Source: Nakamurella alba (GTDB lineage: Bacteria > Actinomycetota > Actinomycetes > Mycobacteriales > Nakamurellaceae). Taken from it: a DNA stretch of 64,000 nt. Where the stretch lies: positions 372,001-436,000 of the forward strand of contig NZ_WLYK01000006.1 in the NCBI RefSeq assembly GCF_009707545.1. The letters are read 5' to 3'. Positions 15,258-32,447 of this stretch are shown piece by piece. The position numbers were made by a program, and so were the translations under genes. Within the stretch, counting starts at the first letter, position 1, and the number at the start of each line of letters is the position of its first letter. Below the pieces are notes generated by a model. It did no database searches and was not told where the DNA came from. It saw only the letters and a list, made by a program, of their open reading frames with translations.

Positions 15258-16628
15258 TCAGACCTCCGGGTCCTGGTTCTGCAGGTCGGCCAGCACGGCC
15301 GGGTCCTGCGCCTCCATCCAGTCGATGAGGTCCCGGTTGGTGACGCAGTAGGTGTCGGCCTTGCCGCAGGTCTCGAGCACGAAGTTGGCGATCGCGTCGG
15401 AGTAGGCGTTGTTGTTCCACGAGTTGAAGTGGTTGCCCAGGATCAGCGGCGCCCGGTTGCCGTTGAACGTCGCGTTGTACATGTCGCGATAGGTGTCCAG
15501 CACCTGCTGCGAGTCCTGCGCCGACTCCGCCTCGGTCACGCCCTCCGAGTTCGCCTCGCGCTGCGTGTAGTAGAAGTTGTAGTCCATCGTGATCTGGAAG
15601 TGGTCGGTGCCGTGGATCGGGTACTCGGCCATCCCGATCTGCCAGATCTTGTTCTCCTTCGACTTCAGCGGCCAGCTGATGCCGTGCTTGGTGAAAGAGC
15701 TGTCGTAGTCCATGTTGTGGGCCTTGTAGGCCGGGAACAGGTCCTCCGCATGGCCTTCCAGGCAGGGCGTGCGGCCGCCGCGGATCTCCGACGGGTCGAT
15801 GTTCAGCTTGTCGGTGATGCCGTTGTTGGCGTCGACGTTCGCCACCAGCGAGAAGAACTGGTCGAGCTCGTTGTTCCAGTCGGCGGTGTTCCACACGTTG
15901 CCGCTGGGGTCGTTGCCCTCGCAGAAGTGGCCGTTGAAGTGGGTGCCGATCTCGTCGCCGCGGTTGATCGCGTCGTTGAGGTCGTTGATCTCGGGCACCA
16001 GGTCGGCCGGCTCGTTCCAGCTGATGGAGGCGGCCCCCGGGTTGTGGCCCGGGCCCTGGTACTTCTCCTTGGTCTCCGTCGTCAGCATGTAGGTGCCGGA
16101 CAGGAAGCCGGTGAAGTGGAACGGCACCTTGGTCTGGATGTCCTTCCAGTACTGCCACTTCTCGTGCCAGCCGACGCCGTCGAAGCTGACCACCACGAAC
16201 TGCGGCGCCTTCTCCCCGGCGGCCAGTTTGGTGATCTTGAAGCCGTCCGGCTCCACCTTGATCACCTCGCCGGTCGGGTCCTGGTACTGCGGCAGGTCCG
16301 CGACGCCGGGGGCGACGGTGCCGGTGGCCGGGTTCGTGCTGGAGGACGTCGAGGGCGGCGCGCTCGAGGTGGGCGGCGCGCTCGAGGTCGACGGCGGTGC
16401 GCTCGAGGTGCTGGGGGCCGTGCTGGTCGACGGCGCCGTGCTCGACGAGGGAGCGGCGCTCGAGCTCGACGGGTCGGCCGGACCCGCGGTCACCGTGACG
16501 TTGCTGGTGACGGTGACCGCCGCGTCGTCGGAACTGCTGCCGCAGGCGCTGAGCAGCAACGATGCGGCGATCAGCGCTCCGGTGGCGGCGATGCGGGAGC
16601 GGGAGCGGTACCAGACCTTCGTTCTCAC
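15258..16628 (-). CDS. Polysaccharide-deacetylase-like secreted lipoprotein (paralogue 1)
   Basis: 456 residues from GTG 16628. A lipoprotein signal ends in LLLSACG, followed by a ~70-residue Ser/Thr/Pro/Ala linker. The ~360-residue domain starts with FVVVSFDGVGW and contains DEIGTHFNGHFC. These look like the NodB/CE4 metal motifs (SFDG for TFDD, HFNGH for HxxxH). Further conserved stretches are FHFTGFLSGTYML and LILGNHFNSWNNNAYSDA. It may deacetylate or otherwise act on cell-wall sugar, but the catalytic Asp pair is incomplete. A close paralogue lies at 18864-20258; both end in nearly identical DNA (WMEAQDPAVLADLQNQ). Divergent from the secreted protein at 16687. Confidence 0.7.
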   Translation of the reverse strand: MRTKVWYRSRSRIAATGALIAASLLLSACGSSSDDAAVTVTSNVTVTAGPADPSSSSAAPSSSTAPSTSTAPSTSSAPPSTSSAPPTSSAPPSTSSSTNPATGTVAPGVADLPQYQDPTGEVIKVEPDGFKITKLAAGEKAPQFVVVSFDGVGWHEKWQYWKDIQTKVPFHFTGFLSGTYMLTTETKEKYQGPGHNPGAASISWNEPADLVPEINDLNDAINRGDEIGTHFNGHFCEGNDPSGNVWNTADWNNELDQFFSLVANVDANNGITDKLNIDPSEIRGGRTPCLEGHAEDLFPAYKAHNMDYDSSFTKHGISWPLKSKENKIWQIGMAEYPIHGTDHFQITMDYNFYYTQREANSEGVTEAESAQDSQQVLDTYRDMYNATFNGNRAPLILGNHFNSWNNNAYSDAIANFVLETCGKADTYCVTNRDLIDWMEAQDPAVLADLQNQDPEV

Positions 16629-16686
16629 CGGACAGACTGTAGTCGCCGCACCACTCCGGGTACGGCGAACGGGAGGAGTCACCCCG

Positions 16687-18357
16687 ATGCACCGCAGGTG
16701 GGCGCACGGCCTGGTCATGCTGTTCGTCCTCGGAGCGGCCTCGCTGGTCACCCCTGCCGCGTCGGCACACACGGTCGCGACACCGGTGTCCGCGGACGCC
16801 GCAGTTGCAACGGGGTCAGTGGTCGCGACGGCGGCTTTCGCCACGTCGACGCCTGTCGTTGCAGCAGCCTGCACTGGCGCGACCGGGGTGACCGTGGTGG
16901 TCGACAAGGGCGTCGAGCCGGCCGCGGCCGGTTGCGCTCCAGGCGATCCGACGGACGGTCTTTCCGCACTCGGCGCGGCCGACTTCCCGTACGAGTTCGT
17001 GCCCCGACAGCCGGGTCTGGTCTGCACGATCGATGACTACCCCGCCTCCTGCAACGGCGCCCCGTCGACCGCCTACTGGTCGTACTGGCACGCGGTCCCC
17101 GGCGGCACCTGGATCTACTCGACGAAGGGCGCCGGCTCCTACGACCCGGCCCCGGGCACCGTGGAGGGGTGGGCGTTCGGCGCCGGCACTCCGCCGCGCA
17201 TCGACCCGCCGCCGGCGCAACCCGGCACCTACCGCCCGACCACCCCGATCCGCAGCTTCGACACCCGTACCGGGCTCGGCACCGCGAAGCGCACGTTGGC
17301 CCCGGGCGCGTCGATCACCGTCACCCTCGCCGGCCGGACCGGGGTCCCGCAGCAGGTGGGGGCGGTGGCGCTGACCGTCTCGGTGGTCGGCCCGACCGCC
17401 GCCGGCACCATCTCTGCCGCACCGGCCGGGGTCACCGCGCGCACCGCTGCCATCAACTTCAGCCGCGGCACCAGCATCTCCGGACTGCTCATCGTCCCGA
17501 CCTCCGCCGCCGGCCGCATCACCCTGACCAACAACTCCACCGGCACCGTCCACCTCGTCGGCGACGTCGCCGGCTGGTACCGGACCGGCACCCCGACCGC
17601 CGCAGGCACCTTCACCGCACTCACCCCGACCCGCAGCTTCGACACCCGGACCGGCCTCGGCACCGCCAAGCGCACCCTCGCACCTGGTGCGTCGATCACC
17701 GTCACCGTGGCCGGGCGGACCGGGGTCCCGATCGGGGCGGCCGCTGTGGCGCTGACCCTGTCCGCCGTCGGCCCGACCGCCGCGGGCACCATCTCCGCAG
17801 CACCGGCCGGGGTCACCGCGCGCACCGCTGCCATCAACTTCAGCCGCGGCACCAGCATCTCCGGACTGCTCATCGTCCCGACCTCCGCCGCCGGCCGCAT
17901 CACCCTGACCAACAACTCCACCGGCATCGTCCACCTCGTCGGCGACGTCGCCGGCTGGTACCGCAGCGGCACCCCGACCGCCGGCGGCAGCCTGGTCGCG
18001 GTCGATCCGGTCCGCACGCTGGACACCCGGACCGGGCTCGGCGCGGCCCGTGGGCCGCTGGCGCCCGGGGAGTCGATCACCGTGCGGATCGCTGGGCGTC
18101 CCGGCGTGCCGTCGACGGGCGCCGGATCCGTGGCGCTGACCCTGTCGGTGGTGTCACCGACAGCGGCCGGCACCGTCACCGCCTATCCCGCGGGCAGCGC
18201 CGCACCGCTGGCCGCGGCGATCAACTGGACGAAGGGCGTCAACATCTCCGGCCTGACCGTGGTGCAGCTCGGTGCCGGCGGATCAGTGGTGCTGCGCAAC
18301 AACTCGACCGGAACTGTGCACCTGGTCGGCGATGTCACCGCCTACCATCGGGGCTGA
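16687..18357 (+). CDS. Secreted protein: transcobalamin-beta-like (DUF4430-type) domain plus three ~125-residue surface repeats
   Basis: 556 residues. A signal peptide ends near residue 27 (PAASA). Residues ~60-175 form a small four-cysteine domain (Cys62, 83, 113, 122) with FVPRQPG, AYWSYWHAVPGGTWIYST and VEGWAFGAG. These motifs recur almost word for word in the B12-riboswitch operon protein at 27834. Residues ~180-556 are three repeats, each opening with a FDTRTGLG-type motif (LDTRTGLG in the third) and closing in NNSTGTVHLVGDV, a module frequent in secreted actinobacterial proteins. GGGAGGAG at 16671-16678 supports ATG 16687. Unlike the 27834 protein it has no membrane anchor. Only 58 bp separate it from the divergent lipoprotein start, and no riboswitch is visible there. 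Confidence 0.75.
   Translation: MHRRWAHGLVMLFVLGAASLVTPAASAHTVATPVSADAAVATGSVVATAAFATSTPVVAAACTGATGVTVVVDKGVEPAAAGCAPGDPTDGLSALGAADFPYEFVPRQPGLVCTIDDYPASCNGAPSTAYWSYWHAVPGGTWIYSTKGAGSYDPAPGTVEGWAFGAGTPPRIDPPPAQPGTYRPTTPIRSFDTRTGLGTAKRTLAPGASITVTLAGRTGVPQQVGAVALTVSVVGPTAAGTISAAPAGVTARTAAINFSRGTSISGLLIVPTSAAGRITLTNNSTGTVHLVGDVAGWYRTGTPTAAGTFTALTPTRSFDTRTGLGTAKRTLAPGASITVTVAGRTGVPIGAAAVALTLSAVGPTAAGTISAAPAGVTARTAAINFSRGTSISGLLIVPTSAAGRITLTNNSTGIVHLVGDVAGWYRSGTPTAGGSLVAVDPVRTLDTRTGLGAARGPLAPGESITVRIAGRPGVPSTGAGSVALTLSVVSPTAAGTVTAYPAGSAAPLAAAINWTKGVNISGLTVVQLGAGGSVVLRNNSTGTVHLVGDVTAYHRG
17402..17963 (+). repeat. Near-identical 381-bp-spaced direct repeat inside the secreted protein gene
   Basis: Modules 1 and 2 of the 16687 gene are almost identical at DNA level. 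Bases 17421-17582 match 17802-17963 with a single difference (C17546 versus T), and similarity extends further upstream. The third module (from ~17995) is diverged. This indicates recent in-frame duplication or gene conversion of a 127-codon unit. Confidence 0.85.
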
Positions 18358-18403: not shown

Positions 18404-18877
18404 ATGAGCACGGATGGGGACGAGATCCGGGAGTTGGCCGAGGCACGGGCCGGGAGTGGCACCACGCGCGGGATCGTCCGCCGTGATGACGCGGCTTGCA
18501 TCTGCGTCGAGACCGACGACCGGGTCAGGTTTCTGGTGATCCTGTTGCACGACGGGGACCACTGGCAGGTCCCCGAACTCCTGGACGGTACGCAGCTGCC
18601 GTTCAACGCCGAGCGATCAGCGGGGCCGCCGGATCAGATCGCCGGGCTGTCCTTCCAGCAGACCGCGCCACCGGGACCCGATCGTCCGGACACCGCCTGG
18701 ACGGCGGTGTGCGGGACGGCGCCGGCCGGGGTCACCGAGGTCATCATCGACTCCGGGATCGACGGACAGACCGTCGAGATCGACGACGACGGATGGTTCC
18801 TCGGGCTGGTGCGCGCTGCATGGGGCCACCGACCGGCGATCCGGTACCGACCGTCGCCGACGGTCAGTACTGGATGA
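18404..18877 (+). CDS. Hypothetical protein, 157 residues
   Basis: ATG 18404 follows a GGGGGG stretch at 18393-18398. The protein is acidic and soluble, with no signal peptide or membrane segment. It alternates short beta-like stretches (RFLVILLHDGDHWQVPELL, GVTEVIIDSGIDGQTVEID, WFLGLV). No family was recognised. It converges on the lipoprotein gene and overlaps its 3' end by 14 bp. Codon usage matches the neighbours. Confidence 0.6.
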   Translation: MSTDGDEIRELAEARAGSGTTRGIVRRDDAACICVETDDRVRFLVILLHDGDHWQVPELLDGTQLPFNAERSAGPPDQIAGLSFQQTAPPGPDRPDTAWTAVCGTAPAGVTEVIIDSGIDGQTVEIDDDGWFLGLVRAAWGHRPAIRYRPSPTVSTG

Positions 18878-20258
18878 GCCCGGTGCACTTCGGCCAGGCG
18901 TCGTAGGGGCACCCGCCGAGATTGCTCTGGTGGTTCTGCAGGTCGGCCAGCACGGCCGGGTCCTGCGCCTCCATCCAGTCGACCAGGTCACGGAACGGCA
19001 CGCAGTAGGTGTTCTCCTTGCCGCAGTACTGCAGGGCGAAGTTGCCGACCGCGTCGCTGTAGGCGTTGTTGTTCCAGTCGTTGAAGTGGTTGCCCAGGAT
19101 GATCGGCTCGTTCACGCCGTCGGTGGTCGCGGCCTTGTACATGTCGGCGTAGGTGTCGAGGACCTGCTGCGAGTCGATCTTGCTCTGCGCGGCGGCCGGC
19201 GGTGTGCCGCTGCCGATCGCGTCCGGCTCCTGCTGCGCGTAGTAGTTGTAGTCCATGGTGATCTGCACGTGGCCGGTGCCGTGGGTGGGGAACTCGGACA
19301 TCCCCATCTCCCATACCTTCCCGTCCTCGCTCAACGTCGGCCAGGACAGCCCGACCCGGGTGAACGAGCTGTCGTAGTTCATCCCGTGCGCCTCGAGAGC
19401 CGGGTACAGGTCGGCCTTGTGGCCGGTCAGGCACGGCGTGCGCTCGCCCTTCACCTGCGAGAGGTCGACCTGCAACTGGTCGCTGATCCCGTTGTTGGCG
19501 TCGACATCCTTGACCAGCGCGAAGAACTGGTCCAGTTCGTTGTTCCAGTCGGCGGTGTTCCAGTCGCCGCCGCCCGGCGGGTTGTCGTCGCAGAAGTGCC
19601 CGTTGAAGTGCGTACCGATCTCGTCGCCCGCGGCGACAGCCTTGTTGAGATCGGCGATCTCGACCGGAAGGTCGCTCGCGCTCGCCCACGGGATCGACGA
19701 CTTGCCGGCCACGTGGCCGGGCCCGGTGTACTTGTCCTTGGTGGCATCGCTGAGCATGTAGGTGCCGGACAGGAACCCGGTCCAGTGCAGCGGCACCTTG
19801 CTGGCGAGATCGAACCAGTAGTCCCACTTCTCGTGCCAGCCGACGCCGTCGAAGCTGAACACGATGAACTGCGGGACCTTGTCGCCCTTGCGCAGCTTGG
19901 TGATCGTGAAGCCGTCGGGTTCAGTCTTCACCACGTCGCCGGCCGGCACCTGGTACGCCACGCCGCCGTCCGATGCACCGCCGGACTTCGTCGTCGATGC
20001 GGTCGACGGGGTCGTGCTCGAAGGATCCGCGCTCGAGGACGTCGGATCAATACTCGAAGAACTCGACGCACTCGTCGGGTCGGTGACCGCGCCCGATGAC
20101 GAGGTCACACCCCCGGTCGCCGGCACCACCACCTCCGACGTGACCGTCACCGCGGCCTGCTCACCACCGCTGCAGGCGGTGAGCAGCAGGGCACCGAGCC
20201 CCAGCAGCACGATCGGCAGTCGTCGGGCCCGACGGCGCAGCAGCACGATGTCCCTCAT
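18864..20258 (-). CDS. Polysaccharide-deacetylase-like secreted lipoprotein (paralogue 2)
   Basis: 464 residues from ATG 20258, signal peptide with lipobox LLLTACS, Ser/Thr-rich linker. The domain is homologous end to end to the 15258-16628 protein: FIVFSFDGVGWHEKWDYW, EIGTHFNGHFCDDN, PIILGNHFNDWNNNAYSDA, WMEAQDPAVLADLQNH. It has an extra C-terminal tail with two cysteines (GGCPYDAWPKCTGL). Same deviations from the NodB metal motif as paralogue 1, so both share a function that may not be classical deacetylation. The pair brackets the secreted repeat protein. Confidence 0.72.
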   Translation of the reverse strand: MRDIVLLRRRARRLPIVLLGLGALLLTACSGGEQAAVTVTSEVVVPATGGVTSSSGAVTDPTSASSSSSIDPTSSSADPSSTTPSTASTTKSGGASDGGVAYQVPAGDVVKTEPDGFTITKLRKGDKVPQFIVFSFDGVGWHEKWDYWFDLASKVPLHWTGFLSGTYMLSDATKDKYTGPGHVAGKSSIPWASASDLPVEIADLNKAVAAGDEIGTHFNGHFCDDNPPGGGDWNTADWNNELDQFFALVKDVDANNGISDQLQVDLSQVKGERTPCLTGHKADLYPALEAHGMNYDSSFTRVGLSWPTLSEDGKVWEMGMSEFPTHGTGHVQITMDYNYYAQQEPDAIGSGTPPAAAQSKIDSQQVLDTYADMYKAATTDGVNEPIILGNHFNDWNNNAYSDAVGNFALQYCGKENTYCVPFRDLVDWMEAQDPAVLADLQNHQSNLGGCPYDAWPKCTGLIQY

Positions 20259-25963: not shown

Positions 25964-25993
25964 TTGACACCACCCGGACCTGCCTGGGACTTT
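25964..25993 (+). promoter_or_regulatory. Candidate promoter of the cobalamin operon
   Basis: TTGACA at 25964-25969 is followed after 18 bases by GACTTT, an imperfect -10. The position just before the riboswitch is right. The -10 is weak, so this is tentative. Confidence 0.4.
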
Positions 25994-25995
25994 GG

Positions 25996-26104
25996 ACCGG
26001 TTGTGCCCACCTGGCAGGGGAAGCCGGTCCGACTCCGGCACTGACCCGCAACGGTAGGTCCGCGGCCCGCGCCGCGGACGAGTCCGGATACCTGCCCGGT
26101 GCGA
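25996..26104 (+). ncRNA. Cobalamin (adenosylcobalamin) riboswitch
   Basis: The core elements of the B12 riboswitch occur in order: GGGGAAGCCGGT, CCGACTCCGGC, CTGACCCGCAACGGTA, an optional GC hairpin (26061-26077), and the B12 box GAGTCCGGATACCTGCC at 26080-26096. GGCAGG (26013-26018) can pair with CCTGCC (26091-26096). The leader runs ~100 bp further to ATG 26197. A CCCCCGC/GCGGGGG hairpin (26145-26164) and an SD-like GAGAGG (26186-26191) lie in the expression platform, so control may be by sequestering the start region. High B12 should switch the five genes off. Confidence 0.93.
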
Positions 26105-26196
26105 AACGGCTCCACACCACCCGTCGAGGTCCGCGGGCGGAGTCCCCCCGCGTCGCAGCGGGGGTACGTCCGTCGGGACCCAGCTGAGAGGCCCCG

Positions 26197-27837
26197 ATGT
26201 CCTTCCTGATCCGTACCGCCGCGGTCGTGTCCGCGACGGTCCTGGGCGCCGGCGCGCTGCTCGCCGCCCCCGCCCTCGCCGTCCCCGCCGAAGGGCCGGT
26301 GTACACCACGGATCCGGCCGCGGGTGCGGCCGGCTGGCTCGCCCGTCAGCTGGTCGACGGTGACCACATGCAGACCGATTTCGGCGGCACGAAGTACGAC
26401 GACCAGGGACTGACGGCGGACGTCATCCTCGCGCTGGACAGCGCCAAGGTCGGCCAGGACGCCGCCGCGGCCGCCACCGGCTGGCTGGCGGACAACGTCC
26501 GGACCTACGTCGGCAACGGCGAGACCGAGTCGTACGCGGGCGCGTTGGCCAAGACCATCCTGGTCGCCGACGCCCAGGGTGAGGACCCGCGCAACTTCGG
26601 CGGGGTCGACCTCGTCGTCCAGCTGGAGAACCTGCACTCCCAGACCGGCCGCTACAGCGACGTCTCGGAGTACGGCGACTACAGCAACGCGATCACCCAG
26701 TCGCTGGCGATCATCGCGCTGAACCGCACCACCGACGCCGCGCCGCAGGACGCCGGCGCCTCGCTGCGCAGCCTGCAGTGCCAGGACGGCGGGTTCGCCC
26801 TCTCCTACGACGTCCAGCCGTGCGTCAGCGATCCCGACGGCACCGCCCACGCGATCCAGGCCCTCAACCCGGGCGAGTCCCAGGAAGCCGCACTCGACTA
26901 CCTCGAGGGCATCCAGCAGGAGAACGGCGGCTTCACAGCCGCGGCCACCGGCGGCGTGCCGGGTGCGGTCAACAGCAACACCACCGGGCTGGCCACCGCC
27001 GCCCTGCTCAAGGGCGACCGCCCGGATCCGGCCGCGGCCGGCATGCAGTACCTGACCGGTCTGCAGGTGACCGTGAACGGCGACGACGTCGGCGCGATCG
27101 CCTACGACGGCACCGGTTTCGACGCCACCACCGCCCCGCGTGCCACCTCGCAGGCGATCCTCGGCCTGATCGGCGCCGACCTGAACACGGTCGACAACAC
27201 CGACGCGGCCGCCGAGGCGCCGGTGCTCGAGGGCACCGACCCGCCGACCAGCTCGAGCAGCGCGCCGAGCTCCAGCAGCTCCGCCGGCTCCAGCACGAGC
27301 CCCTCGTCGTCGTCCGGCTCCTCGACGTCGTCCCCGTCCAGCTCCTCCGCTCCGGTGTCCTCGACCTCGGCCCCGTCCACCCCGTCGACGAGCACCCCGG
27401 CCACCACCGCGACCACCCCGGCCACCAGCACGTCCGAGTCGGCGTCGGTCTCCGCCGATCTGGGCTCGGTGGCGCAGGGCGGCTCCGTCACGGTCACGGT
27501 GAGCGGCTTCCTGCCGGGCGAGACCGCCCGGGTCGAGCTGCACTCCACCCCGATCGTGCTGGGCACCTTCCTGATCGGCGCCGACGGCGCCGGCTCGGCC
27601 ACCGTCACCATCCCGGACGACGCCGAGGCCGGGCAGCACGAGATCTGGGTGATCGGCGAGACCTCCGGTGTGGTCGTCACCATCCCGGTCACCGTCGAGC
27701 CCTCGCTGGCCGCGACCGGCGTCTCCTCCGGCGTCACCACCCTGGGCATCATCGGCCTCGTCACCCTGCTGCTCGGCGGGTCGCTGCTGCTGATCGCCCG
27801 TCGTCGCAGCGTGGCCGCGGGACACCGGCACCGATGA
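26197..27837 (+). CDS. Sortase-anchored surface protein with prenyltransferase/squalene-oxidase-type alpha/alpha repeats (intrinsic-factor-alpha-like)
   Basis: 546 residues. The signal peptide ends near residue 28 (PALA). Residues ~35-340 are helical repeats of the terpenoid-cyclase/prenyltransferase alpha-alpha toroid type: GWLARQLVDGD, DQGLTADVILALDSA, SLQCQDGGFALSY, YLEGIQQENGGFTA, NTTGLATAALL. A Ser/Thr/Pro stalk (~345-425), a beta-sandwich segment, then LAATG (504-508), a hydrophobic helix and RRRS form a class-E sortase signal. The alpha domains of human intrinsic factor and transcobalamin have this fold. As first gene after a cobalamin riboswitch, and coupled to an ECF importer, a surface B12 binder is the natural reading; binding itself is not shown. 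Confidence 0.82.
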   Translation: MSFLIRTAAVVSATVLGAGALLAAPALAVPAEGPVYTTDPAAGAAGWLARQLVDGDHMQTDFGGTKYDDQGLTADVILALDSAKVGQDAAAAATGWLADNVRTYVGNGETESYAGALAKTILVADAQGEDPRNFGGVDLVVQLENLHSQTGRYSDVSEYGDYSNAITQSLAIIALNRTTDAAPQDAGASLRSLQCQDGGFALSYDVQPCVSDPDGTAHAIQALNPGESQEAALDYLEGIQQENGGFTAAATGGVPGAVNSNTTGLATAALLKGDRPDPAAAGMQYLTGLQVTVNGDDVGAIAYDGTGFDATTAPRATSQAILGLIGADLNTVDNTDAAAEAPVLEGTDPPTSSSSAPSSSSSAGSSTSPSSSSGSSTSSPSSSSAPVSSTSAPSTPSTSTPATTATTPATSTSESASVSADLGSVAQGGSVTVTVSGFLPGETARVELHSTPIVLGTFLIGADGAGSATVTIPDDAEAGQHEIWVIGETSGVVVTIPVTVEPSLAATGVSSGVTTLGIIGLVTLLLGGSLLLIARRRSVAAGHRHR

Positions 27838-28940
27838 TCCGCACCCGGGCCAGGAACTCCCGCGCCCGGGGACACCACCGGTTCCGCCCGCTGTTGCTGT
27901 CCCTGCTCGCCGCCGGTGCCGCCCCACTCCTCGGGGCGGCACCGGCCGCAGCGGCAGCGGCCGTGCCGTGCACCGCCCAGCAGGTCACCGTTGTCGTCGG
28001 GTCCGACGTCAGTTGCAGCGGTGACGCCGCGAACGGCCTCGCTGCCCTGCAGTCGGCCGGCCACAGCTACGCTTTCGTCCCGCGCCAACCGGGCTTCGTC
28101 TGCCAGATCGACGGCCAACCGGATCCGTGCAACGGGGCGCCCTCGAACGCCTACTGGTCCTACTGGCACGCCCAGCCCGGCGGTACCTGGGTCTACAGCA
28201 CCGCAGGAGCCGGCTCGTACGACCCGGCCCCGGGCAGCGTCGAGGGCTGGGCCTTCGGTGCCGGCGACCCGCCGCCGATCGACCCACCGACCCTGGCCGC
28301 GCCGCCCACCAACCCGAAGCCCACCCCCACGCAGGCACCGGCGCCGACCACGCCCAAGCCCACCCCCACGAAGACCACTCCGGCTCCGACCACCCGGGCG
28401 ACGACCCCGCGGCCGACCACCGCCCCGGTTCCGACGACGCGGACCACTGCTGCCCCGCCGACAGCACCGTCTCCCACGACACCGCCGACCACGCAGGCAC
28501 CTGGCACGACCGCCCCGGCTCCGCCGACGGCGCCGACCGCCGACCCGCCCACGGCCGACACCACTGCCGAGCAGACCGATGGCGGGCCGGACACCACAAC
28601 GACCTCCGGAACGGCCACCACCGGCGCACCGTCGACGCCGAGCCGCTCCCCCGCTACCTCCGCGATCCCGCCGAGCGCGTCGTCCCCGACCCGGCTCTCG
28701 CACCAGGGCAGCTCCGCGCCTCCTGTACCAATCAGCTCGACATCGGCCCCGGCCCCATCGGCCACCGGATCGAGCGACACCACCCCGTCCGCCGATCCGT
28801 CGGTCCTGCCCGCGTCGGCGGCCACCTCCGACGAGAACGACTCGTCGGCAGGCACCATCTGGGGTGTGGTGGTCGGAGCGCTCGCGGTCGCGGGACTGGG
28901 CACCGTCGCGGTGTTGCGGTCGCGACGGTCCCGCGGGTGA
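27834..28940 (+). CDS. Membrane-anchored transcobalamin-beta-like (DUF4430-type) protein
   Basis: 368 residues, ATG 27834 overlapping the previous stop by 4 nt. A signal peptide ends near residue 42. Residues ~44-150 form a four-cysteine domain (Cys46, 61, 90, 99) with FVPRQPGFVCQIDG, AYWSYWHAQPGGTWVYST and VEGWAFGAG. This pattern resembles the DUF4430/transcobalamin-like C-terminal domain. A ~190-residue Pro/Thr/Ser stalk leads to a C-terminal membrane helix and RSRRSRG. With the alpha-repeat protein next door it looks like a transcobalamin split into two cell-surface chains. The paralogous domain at 16687-18357 is about 60% identical by eye over its core. Confidence 0.78.
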   Translation: MIRTRARNSRARGHHRFRPLLLSLLAAGAAPLLGAAPAAAAAAVPCTAQQVTVVVGSDVSCSGDAANGLAALQSAGHSYAFVPRQPGFVCQIDGQPDPCNGAPSNAYWSYWHAQPGGTWVYSTAGAGSYDPAPGSVEGWAFGAGDPPPIDPPTLAAPPTNPKPTPTQAPAPTTPKPTPTKTTPAPTTRATTPRPTTAPVPTTRTTAAPPTAPSPTTPPTTQAPGTTAPAPPTAPTADPPTADTTAEQTDGGPDTTTTSGTATTGAPSTPSRSPATSAIPPSASSPTRLSHQGSSAPPVPISSTSAPAPSATGSSDTTPSADPSVLPASAATSDENDSSAGTIWGVVVGALAVAGLGTVAVLRSRRSRG

Positions 28941-30064
28941 CGGCGCAGGTCCGTCCGGAGGCGTGGTGGATCTGGGCGTTGTGCCTGGCCGCGACGGCCG
29001 ACCGGACCACCAACCCGATCCTGCTCGCGACGTTGATCGCGGTGACCTGGTTCGTGGTCAGCAGCTGCCGTTCCCGCGAACCGTGGGCGCCGGGCTGGAC
29101 GCGCGGGTTCGCCGCCTTCTTCAAGCTGGCCCTGGTCGTGCTGGCCATCAGGACCGTCTTCCACATCCTGCTCGGCTCGCCCACCGGCGGTCCGGTGCTG
29201 TTCACCCTGCCGACGGTGCACCTGCCGGACTGGGCCACCGGGATCGGGATCGGCGGGCCGGTGTACGCCGACGGCCTGCTCGGCACGCTGTACGCCGCGC
29301 TGTCGCTCGCGGTGCTGCTGTGCTGCGTCGGCGCGGCGGTGGCGCTGGCCGATCCGCGCCGGCTGCTGGCCGCGCTGCCCGGGGCGCTCTACGAGGTCGG
29401 CGTCGCGGTGGTGGTCGCCATGTCGTTGGCGCCGGAACTGCTGGCCGGGGCGCAGCGGGTCCGCCGGGCCCGGGAACTGCGCGGTGACGCCACCGCGGGC
29501 CGCGGGCTGCTGAGGCGGATCCGCGCCTGGGCCCGGCTGGCGCTGCCGCTGCTCGCCGACGCCACCGACCGCGCGCTCACCCTGGCCGCGTCGATGGACG
29601 GGCGCGGGTACGGCCGGGAGGGCGGCCTGGGTCGCACCGGCCGCCGGTGGACGGCCGGCCTGGTGCTGGTCGGGCTGGGCGGTCTGGTGCTGGGGATCTA
29701 CGGGCTGTTGGACACCACCACCCCGCTGCCGGTGACGGTCCTTGCGCTGGTGATCGGCTGCGGCGCCGCCGTCGCCGGCCTGACCGCCGGGTCGCGCCGG
29801 GTGGTCCGTACCCGGTACCGCACCGACCCGTGGACCTGGCGGGACGGTGTGGTCATCGGGTCCGGGCTGGTCGCGCTGGCCGGGTCGGTCGTCGGTGGCC
29901 TGCTCGACGCCCCGCTCGACCCGCCGGACCTGCTGGCCCTGCCGCCGCTGCCGGTGCTGCCGTTCGTCGCCGTGCTGGTCGCCGCGCTGCCCGGACTGCT
30001 GCTGCCGACCCGGGTGCCGCCGGTGCACCGGGCCGCCGATCCGGAGATGGTGACCGCCCGATGA
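28937..30064 (+). CDS. ecfT: ECF transporter T component (EcfT)
   Basis: 375 residues, GTG 28937 with GTGA overlap. About eight hydrophobic segments, more than the usual five to six, with an extended C-terminal membrane part. The coupling-helix signatures are present as RRARELRGD and SMDGRGYGR, matching the family's Ala-Arg-Gly motifs that dock onto the ATPases. It links the S component to the ATPase pair in the membrane. Its place in a B12-riboswitch operon makes it a dedicated (group I) ECF module. Confidence 0.85.
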   Translation: MTAQVRPEAWWIWALCLAATADRTTNPILLATLIAVTWFVVSSCRSREPWAPGWTRGFAAFFKLALVVLAIRTVFHILLGSPTGGPVLFTLPTVHLPDWATGIGIGGPVYADGLLGTLYAALSLAVLLCCVGAAVALADPRRLLAALPGALYEVGVAVVVAMSLAPELLAGAQRVRRARELRGDATAGRGLLRRIRAWARLALPLLADATDRALTLAASMDGRGYGREGGLGRTGRRWTAGLVLVGLGGLVLGIYGLLDTTTPLPVTVLALVIGCGAAVAGLTAGSRRVVRTRYRTDPWTWRDGVVIGSGLVALAGSVVGGLLDAPLDPPDLLALPPLPVLPFVAVLVAALPGLLLPTRVPPVHRAADPEMVTAR

Positions 30065-31659
30065 TCCGCTTCGACGGCGTCTCCGTCCGCTACGACGGCG
30101 CCACCCGGGACACCCTGCGCGGCGTCGACCTGGAGATCCCGGACGGTGAGTTCTGTCTGGTCGTCGGGCCGACCGGCGCCGGCAAGTCGACACTGCTGGG
30201 GCTGGTCAACGGGCACGTCCCGCACTTCACCGGCGGCACGGTCACCGGCCGGGTGCGGGTGGACGGCCGGGACACCAGGCAGTCCCGCCCGCGGGACCTC
30301 GCCGACGTGGTCGGCGTGGTGGTGCAGGACCCGCGGCGCGGGTTCGTCACCGACCGGGTGGACGACGAGCTCGCCTACACGATGGAGTCGCTGGCGCTGC
30401 CGCCCGAGGTGATGCGCCGCCGGGTCGAGGACACGGTGGACCTGTTGGGGCTGGCCGAGTTCCGGCACCGGCCGCTGGCCACCCTCTCCGGCGGGCAGCA
30501 GCAGCGGGTGGCGATCGGCGCCGCGCTGACCGCGCACCCGTCGGTACTGGTGCTCGACGAGCCCACCAGCGCACTGGATCCCGCCGCGGCCGAGGAGGTG
30601 CTGGCCGCCCTGCACCGCCTGGTGCACGACGTCGGCATCACCGTGCTGCTGGCCGAGCACCGACTCGAAAGGGTCGTCGGTGATGTGGATGCGGTGATCC
30701 TGGTGCAGCCCGACGGGCACGTCTGGCACGGCCCGCCCGGCCCGGTCATGGACATCTCCCCGGTGGTACCGCCGGTGGTGGAGCTCGGACGCTGGGCCGG
30801 CTGGTCCCCGCTGCCGCTCACCGTGCGGGACGCCCGGCGCCGCGCGGCGCCGTTGCGCGAGCAGGTCACCGCCCCGGCCCGTCAGGCCGACACCGCCGGC
30901 ACGGGAGTCATCGGCCTGCTGAAGCTCTCGGCCGGACACGACGGTCGCACGCCGGTCGCCGGACCGCTGACCGTCACCGCCGGCAGCGGGGAGATCATCG
31001 GCCTGATGGGACGCAACGGCGCCGGGAAGTCGACACTGCTGTGGACGATCGCCGCTGCGCTGACACCGATCTCGGGCTCGGTGCTGGTCGGCGGTGCTGA
31101 CCCGCGGACGCTGCCGCCCGCCGACCGGCGCCGGTCCGTCGCCCTGGTCCCGCAGCAGCCGGGCGATCTGTTGTACCAGCGGAGTGCCGCCGCGGAGCTC
31201 CGGCAGTCGGACGCCGATGCCGCCCGGCCGCCCGGCACCACGGCAGCGCTGTTCGCCGAGCTGGCACCGGGCGCCGACGCCGACCTGCACCCGCGTGACC
31301 TGTCCGAGGGGCAGCGGCTGGCCCTTGCGCTGTCGATTCAGATGGCCGCGCAGCCGCGCCTGCTGCTGCTCGACGAGCCCACTCGCGGGCTGGACTACCC
31401 GGCAAAGCAACGACTCTCGACCCTGCTCCGGCAGTGGTCGGCCGACGGCGTCACCGTGCTGCTGGCCAGTCATGACGTCGAGTTCGTCGCCGGCGTCTGC
31501 CGCCGGGTGCTGATCCTGGCCGACGGCCGCCTGATCGACGACGGCCCGACCGCGTCCGTGGTGACCGCCTCCCCGACCTATGCACCGCAGGTCGCGAAGA
31601 TCATGGCGCCGGTGCCGGTGCTCACCGTCGACGAGCTGCGAGCCGGGATGCCGTCATGA
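30061..31659 (+). CDS. ECF transporter ATPase, two ABC domains fused (EcfA-EcfA')
   Basis: 532 residues, 4-nt overlap with EcfT. Domain 1 has Walker A GPTGAGKST (36-44), signature LSGGQQQRV and Walker B VLVLDEPTSALD. Domain 2 has GRNGAGKST (~residue 317), a shortened signature LSEGQRLAL and LLLLDEPTRGLD. Switch histidines are in LAEHRLE and LASHDVE. The fusion replaces the usual separate EcfA1 and EcfA2. Domain 2 is the more divergent, with a shortened helical subdomain. Confidence 0.9.
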   Translation: MIRFDGVSVRYDGATRDTLRGVDLEIPDGEFCLVVGPTGAGKSTLLGLVNGHVPHFTGGTVTGRVRVDGRDTRQSRPRDLADVVGVVVQDPRRGFVTDRVDDELAYTMESLALPPEVMRRRVEDTVDLLGLAEFRHRPLATLSGGQQQRVAIGAALTAHPSVLVLDEPTSALDPAAAEEVLAALHRLVHDVGITVLLAEHRLERVVGDVDAVILVQPDGHVWHGPPGPVMDISPVVPPVVELGRWAGWSPLPLTVRDARRRAAPLREQVTAPARQADTAGTGVIGLLKLSAGHDGRTPVAGPLTVTAGSGEIIGLMGRNGAGKSTLLWTIAAALTPISGSVLVGGADPRTLPPADRRRSVALVPQQPGDLLYQRSAAAELRQSDADAARPPGTTAALFAELAPGADADLHPRDLSEGQRLALALSIQMAAQPRLLLLDEPTRGLDYPAKQRLSTLLRQWSADGVTVLLASHDVEFVAGVCRRVLILADGRLIDDGPTASVVTASPTYAPQVAKIMAPVPVLTVDELRAGMPS

Positions 31660-32447
31660 CCGATCACCTCACCGGCACACCGACCGCGCTGCGCATCCAC
31701 CCGCGCTCGACCGTCGCGCTGCTGCTCGCCTTCCTGGCCACCGTCGCGGCTTTCGGCTGGCCGCTGCTGGTCTCGCCGGACTCCGGGCTGGCCCACGGCA
31801 ACGACGCGACCCTGGTGTTCGCCGTGCTGCTCCCGCTGGTGCTTGCGGTGGTGCTCGCCGAGCTCAGCGAGGGCGGCATCGACGCGAAGGCCGTGGCGAT
31901 GCTCGGCGTGCTGTCCGCGGTGGGCTCGGCGATCCGGCTGCTCGGCGCCGGTACCGGCGGGATCGAGCCGGTGTTCTTCCTGATCGTGCTGGCCGGGCGG
32001 GTGTTCGGCCGCGGGTTCGGGTTCGTCCTGGGCTGCACCACCCTGCTGGCCTCGGCACTGCTCACCGGCGGGGTCGGTCCGTGGCTGCCGTTCCAGATGC
32101 TCGGTGCGGCCTGGGTCGGGTTCGGCGCGGGCTGCCTGCCGGCCGTCCGCGGCCGGTGGGAGATCGCCGTGCTGGCCGGCTACGCGACCCTGGCCGCCCT
32201 CGCCTACGGAGTCGCGCTGAACCTGTCGTTCTGGCCGTTCACCCTCGGCGGCGGCACCGAGATCTCCTTCGTACCAGGTGATCCGGTGGCCGACAACCTC
32301 CCGCGACTGCTCGCCTTCAGCCTGGCCACCTCGCTCGGCTGGGACCTGATGCGGGCGGTCACCACCGTGCTGCTGGTGGTGCTGGCCGGGCCCGGGGTGC
32401 TGTTCGTGCTGCGCCGGGCGGCCCGCAAGGCCCGCTGGGCCGGCTGA
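31656..32447 (+). CDS. ECF transporter S component, probably cobalamin-specific
   Basis: 263 residues, 4-nt overlap with the ATPase. Six to seven hydrophobic segments, with family-like stretches LGVLSAVGSAIRLL, GRVFGRGFGFVLGC, WLPFQMLGAAWVGFGAG and the C-terminal LATSLGWDLMRAVTTV. The S component gives the substrate specificity; vitamin B12 is inferred from the riboswitch and the two transcobalamin-like surface genes. It ends six bases from the convergent glycosylase gene. Confidence 0.82.
   Translation: MTDHLTGTPTALRIHPRSTVALLLAFLATVAAFGWPLLVSPDSGLAHGNDATLVFAVLLPLVLAVVLAELSEGGIDAKAVAMLGVLSAVGSAIRLLGAGTGGIEPVFFLIVLAGRVFGRGFGFVLGCTTLLASALLTGGVGPWLPFQMLGAAWVGFGAGCLPAVRGRWEIAVLAGYATLAALAYGVALNLSFWPFTLGGGTEISFVPGDPVADNLPRLLAFSLATSLGWDLMRAVTTVLLVVLAGPGVLFVLRRAARKARWAG

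What the first reader, a model, noticed from the sequence alone, without database searches (positions are those of the whole stretch)
25996..32447. B12-riboswitch operon encoding a split, surface-anchored transcobalamin-like capture system plus a dedicated ECF importer
Seen: a full cobalamin riboswitch (B12 box 26080-26096). Five coupled genes follow: an alpha/alpha-repeat protein with a LAATG sortase signal, a four-Cys DUF4430-like domain on a Pro/Thr stalk with a membrane anchor, EcfT, fused double EcfA, and an S component. Known: intrinsic factor and transcobalamin hold B12 between an alpha6/alpha6 barrel and a DUF4430-type beta domain. Inference: here the two halves are separate surface chains that close on B12 and hand it to the S component across the Gram-positive wall. 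I know of no characterised bacterial system with this exact arrangement.
Basis: partly seen in the sequence, partly recalled or inferred. Interest (0 to 1): 0.88.

Follow-up and report, generated by a model that had tools for sequence, protein, structure and literature searches.

The report
Bacterial split transcobalamin-like B12 uptake operon
An actinobacterium carries a vitamin-B12-controlled gene cluster that seems to catch B12 on the cell surface with two separate proteins resembling the two halves of the human B12 carrier proteins, and then passes it to a membrane importer; the parts are well supported, but that they grip B12 together is still untested.

Summary
A cobalamin riboswitch (RF00174, 46.2 bits) precedes five genes, each overlapping the next by 4 bases: alpha/alpha toroid with LAATG anchor, four-Cys beta domain on a Pro/Thr stalk, EcfT, fused EcfAA and an S component.
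A cobalamin-clan riboswitch lies upstream in 36 of 39 related loci (17 of these below Rfam's cut-off). ECF genes lie nearby in 34 of 40. 27 natural beta-toroid fusions were retrieved. In other classes the toroid is fused to the S component (4 loci). In Streptomyces-type relatives both halves are circularly permuted, always together (0 mixed of 24).
The idea is not wholly new: Burroughs et al. 2007 predicted surface SLBB/toroid B12 scavengers with CbiO/CbiQ genes in Gram-positives. The split, riboswitch-controlled, matched-pair version is a new variant. That the halves jointly hold B12 and hand it to S is inferred. Seven beta-only operons argue that the toroid is not always needed.

The parts
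25982..26113 (+). Cobalamin riboswitch aptamer (RF00174), B12 box near 26079-26096
   Evidence: Rfam cmscan 46.2 bits, gathering 31.5, E 2.1e-8; sequence
26197..27837 (+). Secreted, wall-anchored alpha/alpha-toroid protein (P0001, 546 aa), relative of SCO2321_fam with permuted order
   Evidence: NF053823 E 6e-24, order profile 249-354 then 46-239; AF2 pLDDT 96.2 for residues 28-345
26278..27231 (+). Toroid domain (P0246, residues 28-345)
   Evidence: AF2 model and PDB fold matches
27706..27837 (+). LAATG sorting signal, hydrophobic helix and basic tail
   Evidence: TIGR01167 17.3 bits, cut-off 15.9; 51 of 57 TM-tailed toroid proteins carry L[AP]xTG
27834..28940 (+). Membrane-anchored transcobalamin-type beta-domain protein (P0002, 368 aa): signal peptide, 4-Cys beta domain, Pro/Thr stalk, TM
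27969..28268 (+). Beta-grasp (transcobalamin-type) domain, Cys 46/61/90/99
28937..30064 (+). EcfT transmembrane coupling subunit (P0003)
   Evidence: PF02361 E 2.7e-10; EcfT chains in PDB E 4.1e-6
30061..31659 (+). Fused double EcfA ATPase (P0004)
   Evidence: Two ABC_tran stretches; TIGR04521/04520 best but below cut-offs
31656..32447 (+). ECF S component (P0005), substrate-binding membrane protein
   Evidence: PF12822 E 7.2e-6, below curated cut-off; 33% identical to the S part of an S-toroid fusion, E 4e-10

Best explanation
A cobalamin-repressed corrinoid scavenging system. When corrinoids are plentiful, the riboswitch shuts the operon (inferred). When they are scarce, the cell displays two extracellular proteins: a sortase-anchored alpha/alpha toroid and a membrane-tethered beta-grasp domain on a long Pro/Thr stalk. 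These correspond to the alpha and beta domains of transcobalamin and intrinsic factor. Most likely the toroid forms the floor and the beta domain the lid of a corrinoid site; they capture B12 at the wall and release it to the S component, from which EcfT/EcfAA import it. Shown here: riboswitch, gene order, predicted folds, anchor motifs, natural fusions of beta to toroid and of toroid to S, and matched topology of the two halves. Inferred: corrinoid binding, joint binding of one molecule, and hand-off to S.
Against: Seven sampled operons (L073-L076, L078-L080) have beta + ECF but no toroid, and their genomes show no SCO2321_fam match at E <= 1e-3. The toroid model is closer to terpene cyclases than to transcobalamin. 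Beta-to-DUF4430 profile comparison is not significant: score 12.9 in one direction and 18.0 in the other, against up to 16.9 for 30 shuffles run in the first direction. The host appears to make B12 itself (cobN, cobK, cobU, cobT, cobO), so uptake is not obligatory. Six of 40 loci show no toroid/beta-ECF pairing. No complex or ligand was modelled.
Confidence: 0.72

Rival explanations
1. Same machinery, but the cargo is an incomplete corrinoid (cobinamide, cobyrinate diamide) or other cobamides rather than B12 itself.
For: A review passage lists cbrUVT as cobyrinate diamide uptake (PMC8123684, passage); the characterised CbrT takes both cobalamin and cobinamide (PMC5997447, passages); the host has cobU and cobT salvage steps.
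Against: The beta domain matches complete-cobalamin carriers best, but that does not fix the ligand.
Confidence: 0.2
2. Only the beta domain captures the corrinoid; the toroid is an accessory wall or glycan-binding spacer and does not form half of the site.
For: Seven beta-only operons, two of them (L075, L079) with a gathering-level riboswitch about 190-310 nt upstream of the beta segment; toroid closer to cyclases and glycosidase-type toroids than to transcobalamin.
Against: Beta-toroid fusions, toroid-S fusions and matched permutation point to direct partnership.
Confidence: 0.17
3. A cobalt importer of the CbiMNQO kind, placed under B12 control because cobalt limits B12 synthesis.
For: EcfT is of the CbiQ family; the host makes B12.
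Against: No CbiM or CbiN match among the five proteins in the listed rows; large transcobalamin-type capture domains would be odd for a metal ion.
Confidence: 0.05
4. The toroid is an extracellular terpene-cyclase-like enzyme and the operon handles another ligand.
For: Best toroid matches are squalene-hopene and drimenyl diphosphate cyclases.
Against: DxDD is found at the aligned place in 0 of 62 rows; it is secreted and wall-anchored by its motifs; B12 riboswitches precede the operon.
Confidence: 0.02

Closest known systems
Animal transcobalamin / intrinsic factor / haptocorrin
   Different: Two separate anchored chains, toroid less specifically similar, coupled to an ECF importer; relatives are fused as beta then toroid, the reverse of the animal order.
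Predicted SLBB/transcobalamin-like B12 scavengers of low-GC Gram-positives (Burroughs et al. 2007, PMC1796856; abstract, section 7 part 1 of 2 and passages seen)
   Same: Surface SLBB domain plus alpha/alpha toroid, operons with CbiO-like ATPase and CbiQ-like permease, B12 scavenging proposed.
   Different: Toroid/SLBB pairing is described there as fusion; here two chains. Actinobacterial, under a cobalamin riboswitch, own S component, four-Cys beta family without Pfam DUF4430 match, paired circular permutation in relatives. That paper notes that its bacteria usually lack key B12 synthesis enzymes; this host has many of them.
ECF-CbrT of Lactobacillus delbrueckii (PMC5997447, passages seen)
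   Same: ECF-type cobalamin importer; EcfT relative.
   Different: No dedicated extracellular capture proteins in the passages seen; the S component P0005 had no relevant PDB match.
SCO2321/SCO2322 families of NCBIfam
   Same: Same operon partners and clear homology.
   Different: Both proteins circularly permuted relative to the window's; the window's proteins score below both curated cut-offs.
Bacteroides BtuG/BtuH surface B12-binding lipoproteins (PMC6143338, PMC8941943; search listing only)
   Same: Surface capture of B12 before import.
   Different: Different proteins and an outer-membrane route (from titles and abstract starts in the listing, and recall).

Membership tests
Transcobalamin-type (SLBB/DUF4430) beta domain | Beta-grasp fold with hairpin insert after the helix | tested here: met
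Transcobalamin-type (SLBB/DUF4430) beta domain | Sequence match to Pfam DUF4430 (PF14478) | tested here: not met
   0 of 60 members at E <= 1; no match in the own genome; profile comparison not significant
Transcobalamin / intrinsic factor family | Toroid of the Cobalamin_bind family (PF01122) | tested here: inconclusive
   P0246 no match; 4 of 62 rows match weakly, best E 0.054; transcobalamin at Foldseek ranks 33-34, E about 2e-5
Transcobalamin / intrinsic factor family | Toroid and beta domain in one chain | tested here: not met
   Two chains in the window; one chain in some relatives
Transcobalamin / intrinsic factor family | High-affinity cobalamin binding between the two domains | not testable with these tools
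   No ligand or complex modelling available
ECF transporter with its own module | EcfT, two EcfA domains and an S component in one operon | tested here: met
   S is below the Pfam cut-off, but tblastn finds its relatives in 31 of 40 related loci at 39-67% identity (one, L084, is a cut-off stretch)
Cobalamin riboswitch regulon | RF00174 at or above gathering score upstream on the coding strand | tested here: met
   46.2 bits against 31.5
SCO2321_fam / SCO2322_fam (NCBIfam) | Score at or above curated cut-off | tested here: not met
   84.7 against 300 and 27.3 against 85; domain order permuted
Class II terpene cyclase | DxDD acid motif | tested here: not met
   0 of 62 rows at the aligned place
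Sortase-anchored proteins | L[AP]xTG-type motif, TM helix, basic tail | tested here: met
   LAATG, TIGR01167 over cut-off; sortase matches in the genome. That class E sortases prefer LAxTG is recalled, not tested

The most novel reading that the evidence does not exclude
An ECF importer with its own extracellular two-piece 'bacterial intrinsic factor': toroid and beta lid close on one corrinoid at the wall and dock on the S component. The two pieces have coevolved so tightly that when one became circularly permuted the other did too, and the toroid is hard-wired to S in other classes. ECF transporters are regarded as working without extracellular binding proteins (recalled), so this would be a new mode for them, and a bacterial relative of the animal carrier.
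Probability: 0.5. Interest if true: 0.82.

Novelty: new variant of a known kind. Interest (0 to 1): 0.63.

Why it matters
In the papers I could search I found no characterised surface step for B12 uptake in this group of bacteria. If right, this names that step, links the animal B12 carriers to a widespread bacterial system, gives two unnamed NCBIfam families a likely function, and offers a testable case of an ECF transporter fed by extracellular capture proteins. The paired circular permutation gives an unusual evolutionary argument that two separate chains touch each other.

Tried and rejected
Cobalt import (no CbiM/CbiN match) and an extracellular cyclase (no DxDD) were rejected. Sequence proof that the beta family is DUF4430 failed: hhalign 12.9 and 18.0 against 30 shuffles up to 16.9; the fold is the evidence. 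A single origin of the permuted type was neither shown nor excluded: two changes on the transporter tree; two are forced by well-supported branches in the quick tree but only one in the careful tree, and the AU test gives p 0.48 for one clade (the beta-only loci were labelled SCO there). No intrinsic terminator or sigma-70-like site was found around the riboswitch, and the leader fold was no better than shuffles (z -0.06), so the switch mechanism is open. A viral-contig scan for the S component found nothing. The S component had no relevant PDB match. In VIA's 50 shown rows for the toroid no transcobalamin appears. Papers, held library only: SCO2321-2325 found in one unrelated paper; DUF4430 with cobalamin in two papers, one a passage on fish, one seen in the listing only; other searches. 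Rodionov et al. 2009 is not held, so its assignments are known to me only by recall and through passages of others.

Rows dropped before counts: L077 (no toroid/beta HMM hit; one ABC ATPase match on the other strand) from the riboswitch and ECF counts; L084 starts at a contig end and was not retested; L067 and L104 had no riboswitch hit. For matched topology I used only loci with both proteins' order resolved (16 window-type: L085-L095, L097, L100-L103, with beta segment A only at E 0.04-0.05 in L085 and L101; 8 SCO-type: L066-L070, L081-L083). Left out: L071, L072 (second toroid segment not found), L096, L098, L099, L105 (beta incomplete), L104 (ambiguous), L084, L077 and the seven beta-only loci. 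In the SCO type the beta order comes from the NCBIfam profile and a tblastn query, since segment A is not found there by my HMM. For the rotation tests, of 30 loci each, 23 beta and 27 toroid sequences were extracted; 14 beta met the cutting rule and 25 toroids were long enough; one search had read some loci on the wrong strand and was superseded. Alignments used 59 of the 120 listed beta homologues and 61 of the 119 listed toroid homologues.

Full report
WHAT IS THERE. The window holds one gathering-level Rfam match, a cobalamin riboswitch at 25982-26113 (46.2 bits against 31.5). It is followed by five same-strand genes that overlap by four bases each (26197-27837, 27834-28940, 28937-30064, 30061-31659, 31656-32447). 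They encode a secreted alpha/alpha-repeat protein with an LAATG anchor, a secreted four-Cys domain on a Pro/Thr stalk with a TM anchor, EcfT (CbiQ family), a fused EcfAA and an S component.

ANCHORS. Of 120 toroid proteins (the query and 119 homologues), 57 have a C-terminal TM stretch by a simple hydropathy rule, and 51 of these carry L[AP]xTG. Of 121 beta proteins, 117 have the TM stretch and one carries L[AP]xTG. Two toroid homologues carry SLH domains instead. So as a rule the toroid is wall-linked or secreted, and the beta chain sits in the membrane.

GENOMIC CONTEXT. NCBIfam families for the Streptomyces counterparts SCO2321 and SCO2322 were searched in 197 genomes of the class: 100 and 88 had a match at E <= 1e-3 (the weak short SCO2321 matches may be unrelated toroids, not checked). 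I fetched 40 regions, chosen from these matches, not at random. ECF genes were found together with toroid or beta in 34 of 40; the six without are L077, L082, L083, L088, L096 and L104, of which L096 reaches a contig end. Riboswitches: of 38 regions with toroid/beta hits that were scanned, 18 had a cobalamin-clan match at gathering score on the coding strand, 188 to 574 nt upstream of the nearest HMM segment. For 19 of the remaining 20, and for L083, I fetched about 1.2 kb upstream and scanned it with lax filters. All 19 matches at E <= 1 were cobalamin-clan; 18 of 20 pieces had one on the coding strand with E <= 0.029; only one of those 18 (L172) passes its curated cut-off. Together that is 36 of 39 loci.

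FUSIONS. In a Jiangella alba locus (L100; species) one 1195-aa protein holds beta, Ig-type, toroid and a second toroid, directly behind a cobalamin riboswitch that just passes its cut-off (32.0 against 31.5), and is followed by a further beta gene, EcfT, EcfAA and S. A search with residues 20-710 gave 218 proteins, 120 listed. Among the 53 of these 120 with a toroid hit, 27 also have the beta domain (24 with both beta segments), always beta first and with the first toroid in torA-torB order. The query was a fusion and the length window excludes single domains, so this is not a frequency. In other classes of the phylum, Pfam DUF4430 proteins (51 of 296 genomes) sit with EcfA, S and toroid genes (20 regions fetched: EcfA and S in 15, a toroid hit in 15, none of these in L133, L149 and L152). 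RF00174 passes its cut-off in 9 of 10 of these regions scanned, on the strand of the ECF genes, from about 0.2 to several kb upstream of the DUF4430 hit; what lies between was not examined. In L142, L145, L146 and L147 the S component and the toroid are one open frame; P0005 aligns to the S part of L142 at E 4e-10.

PAIRED CIRCULAR PERMUTATION. In Streptomyces-type relatives both proteins are circularly permuted relative to the window. Unrotated against rotated profiles align over 37 against 82 columns for beta (14 rotated sequences; the scores are about equal, 78 and 77, so the gain is in coverage), and 168 against 295 columns with score 215 against 334 for the toroid (25 sequences). In 24 loci where the order of both is resolved, 16 are window-type in both, 8 permuted in both, none mixed. 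The window type shares the order of transcobalamin and DUF4430 for beta. On a tree of EcfA and S sequences the type changes twice, but one origin is not rejected (AU p 0.48), so this may rest on a single coupled event.

RESULTS AGAINST. Seven operons (L073-L076, L078-L080) have beta, EcfT, EcfA and S without a toroid; their genomes were among the 197 searched and are not among the matches for SCO2321_fam. The host carries cobN, cobK, cobU, cobT, cobO and CbiA/GATase genes near further riboswitches (one of the five sites is below the cut-off), and a riboswitch also precedes class I ribonucleotide reductase genes. It is thus probably a B12 maker and the operon a salvage route.

MECHANISM. The best reading is riboswitch-controlled corrinoid scavenging in which the toroid and the stalked beta domain act as the two jaws of a transcobalamin-like site that feeds the S component. 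I put the corrinoid uptake role at about 0.9, capture by these surface proteins at about 0.75, and one shared site at about 0.55. Stepwise binding, release and the role of the four Cys are inference.

NOVELTY. Burroughs et al. 2007 (PMC1796856; abstract, section 7 part 1 of 2, one reviewer report and passages seen) predicted surface SLBB/toroid proteins with CbiO/CbiQ genes as B12 scavengers, so the idea is known in outline. I found no experimental account in the held library. What is new here, as far as those searches reach, is the actinobacterial two-chain form, its consistent riboswitch association, the fusions to S, and the paired permutation. Hence: new variant of a known kind.

Noticed in passing
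window 16687-18357 (+), domain 16876-17187: A second four-Cys transcobalamin-type beta domain in window order (segments A and B at E 1.7e-20 and 3.8e-23; SCO2322_fam E 5.1e-6), N-terminal to repeats of the 'FDTRTGLG' kind. No riboswitch near it at gathering score, no toroid, EcfT or S hit elsewhere in the window, no Pfam match.
   Followed up: partly
L142, L145, L146, L147: ECF S component and alpha/alpha toroid in one open reading frame in other classes of the phylum.
   Followed up: partly
L075 (1.3 Mb genome, G025) and other f27 genomes: Small genomes keep the SCO2322-type beta protein but none of the f27 genomes is among the SCO2321_fam matches; L075 has beta + ECF under an AdoCbl riboswitch.
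   Followed up: partly
L086 (G095, same order): Two toroid-beta pairs in tandem before one ECF set, with four cobalamin riboswitch matches in 19 kb.
   Followed up: no
own genome C5:34994-35227 (-): Strongest cobalamin riboswitch of the genome (76.7 bits) precedes class I ribonucleotide reductase genes (gene identity read from the sequence, not from a family search).
   Followed up: partly
window 15258-17027 and 18864-20258 (-): Two similar secreted Ser/Thr-rich proteins flank the second beta gene on the other strand; neither has a Pfam match at E <= 0.1.
   Followed up: no
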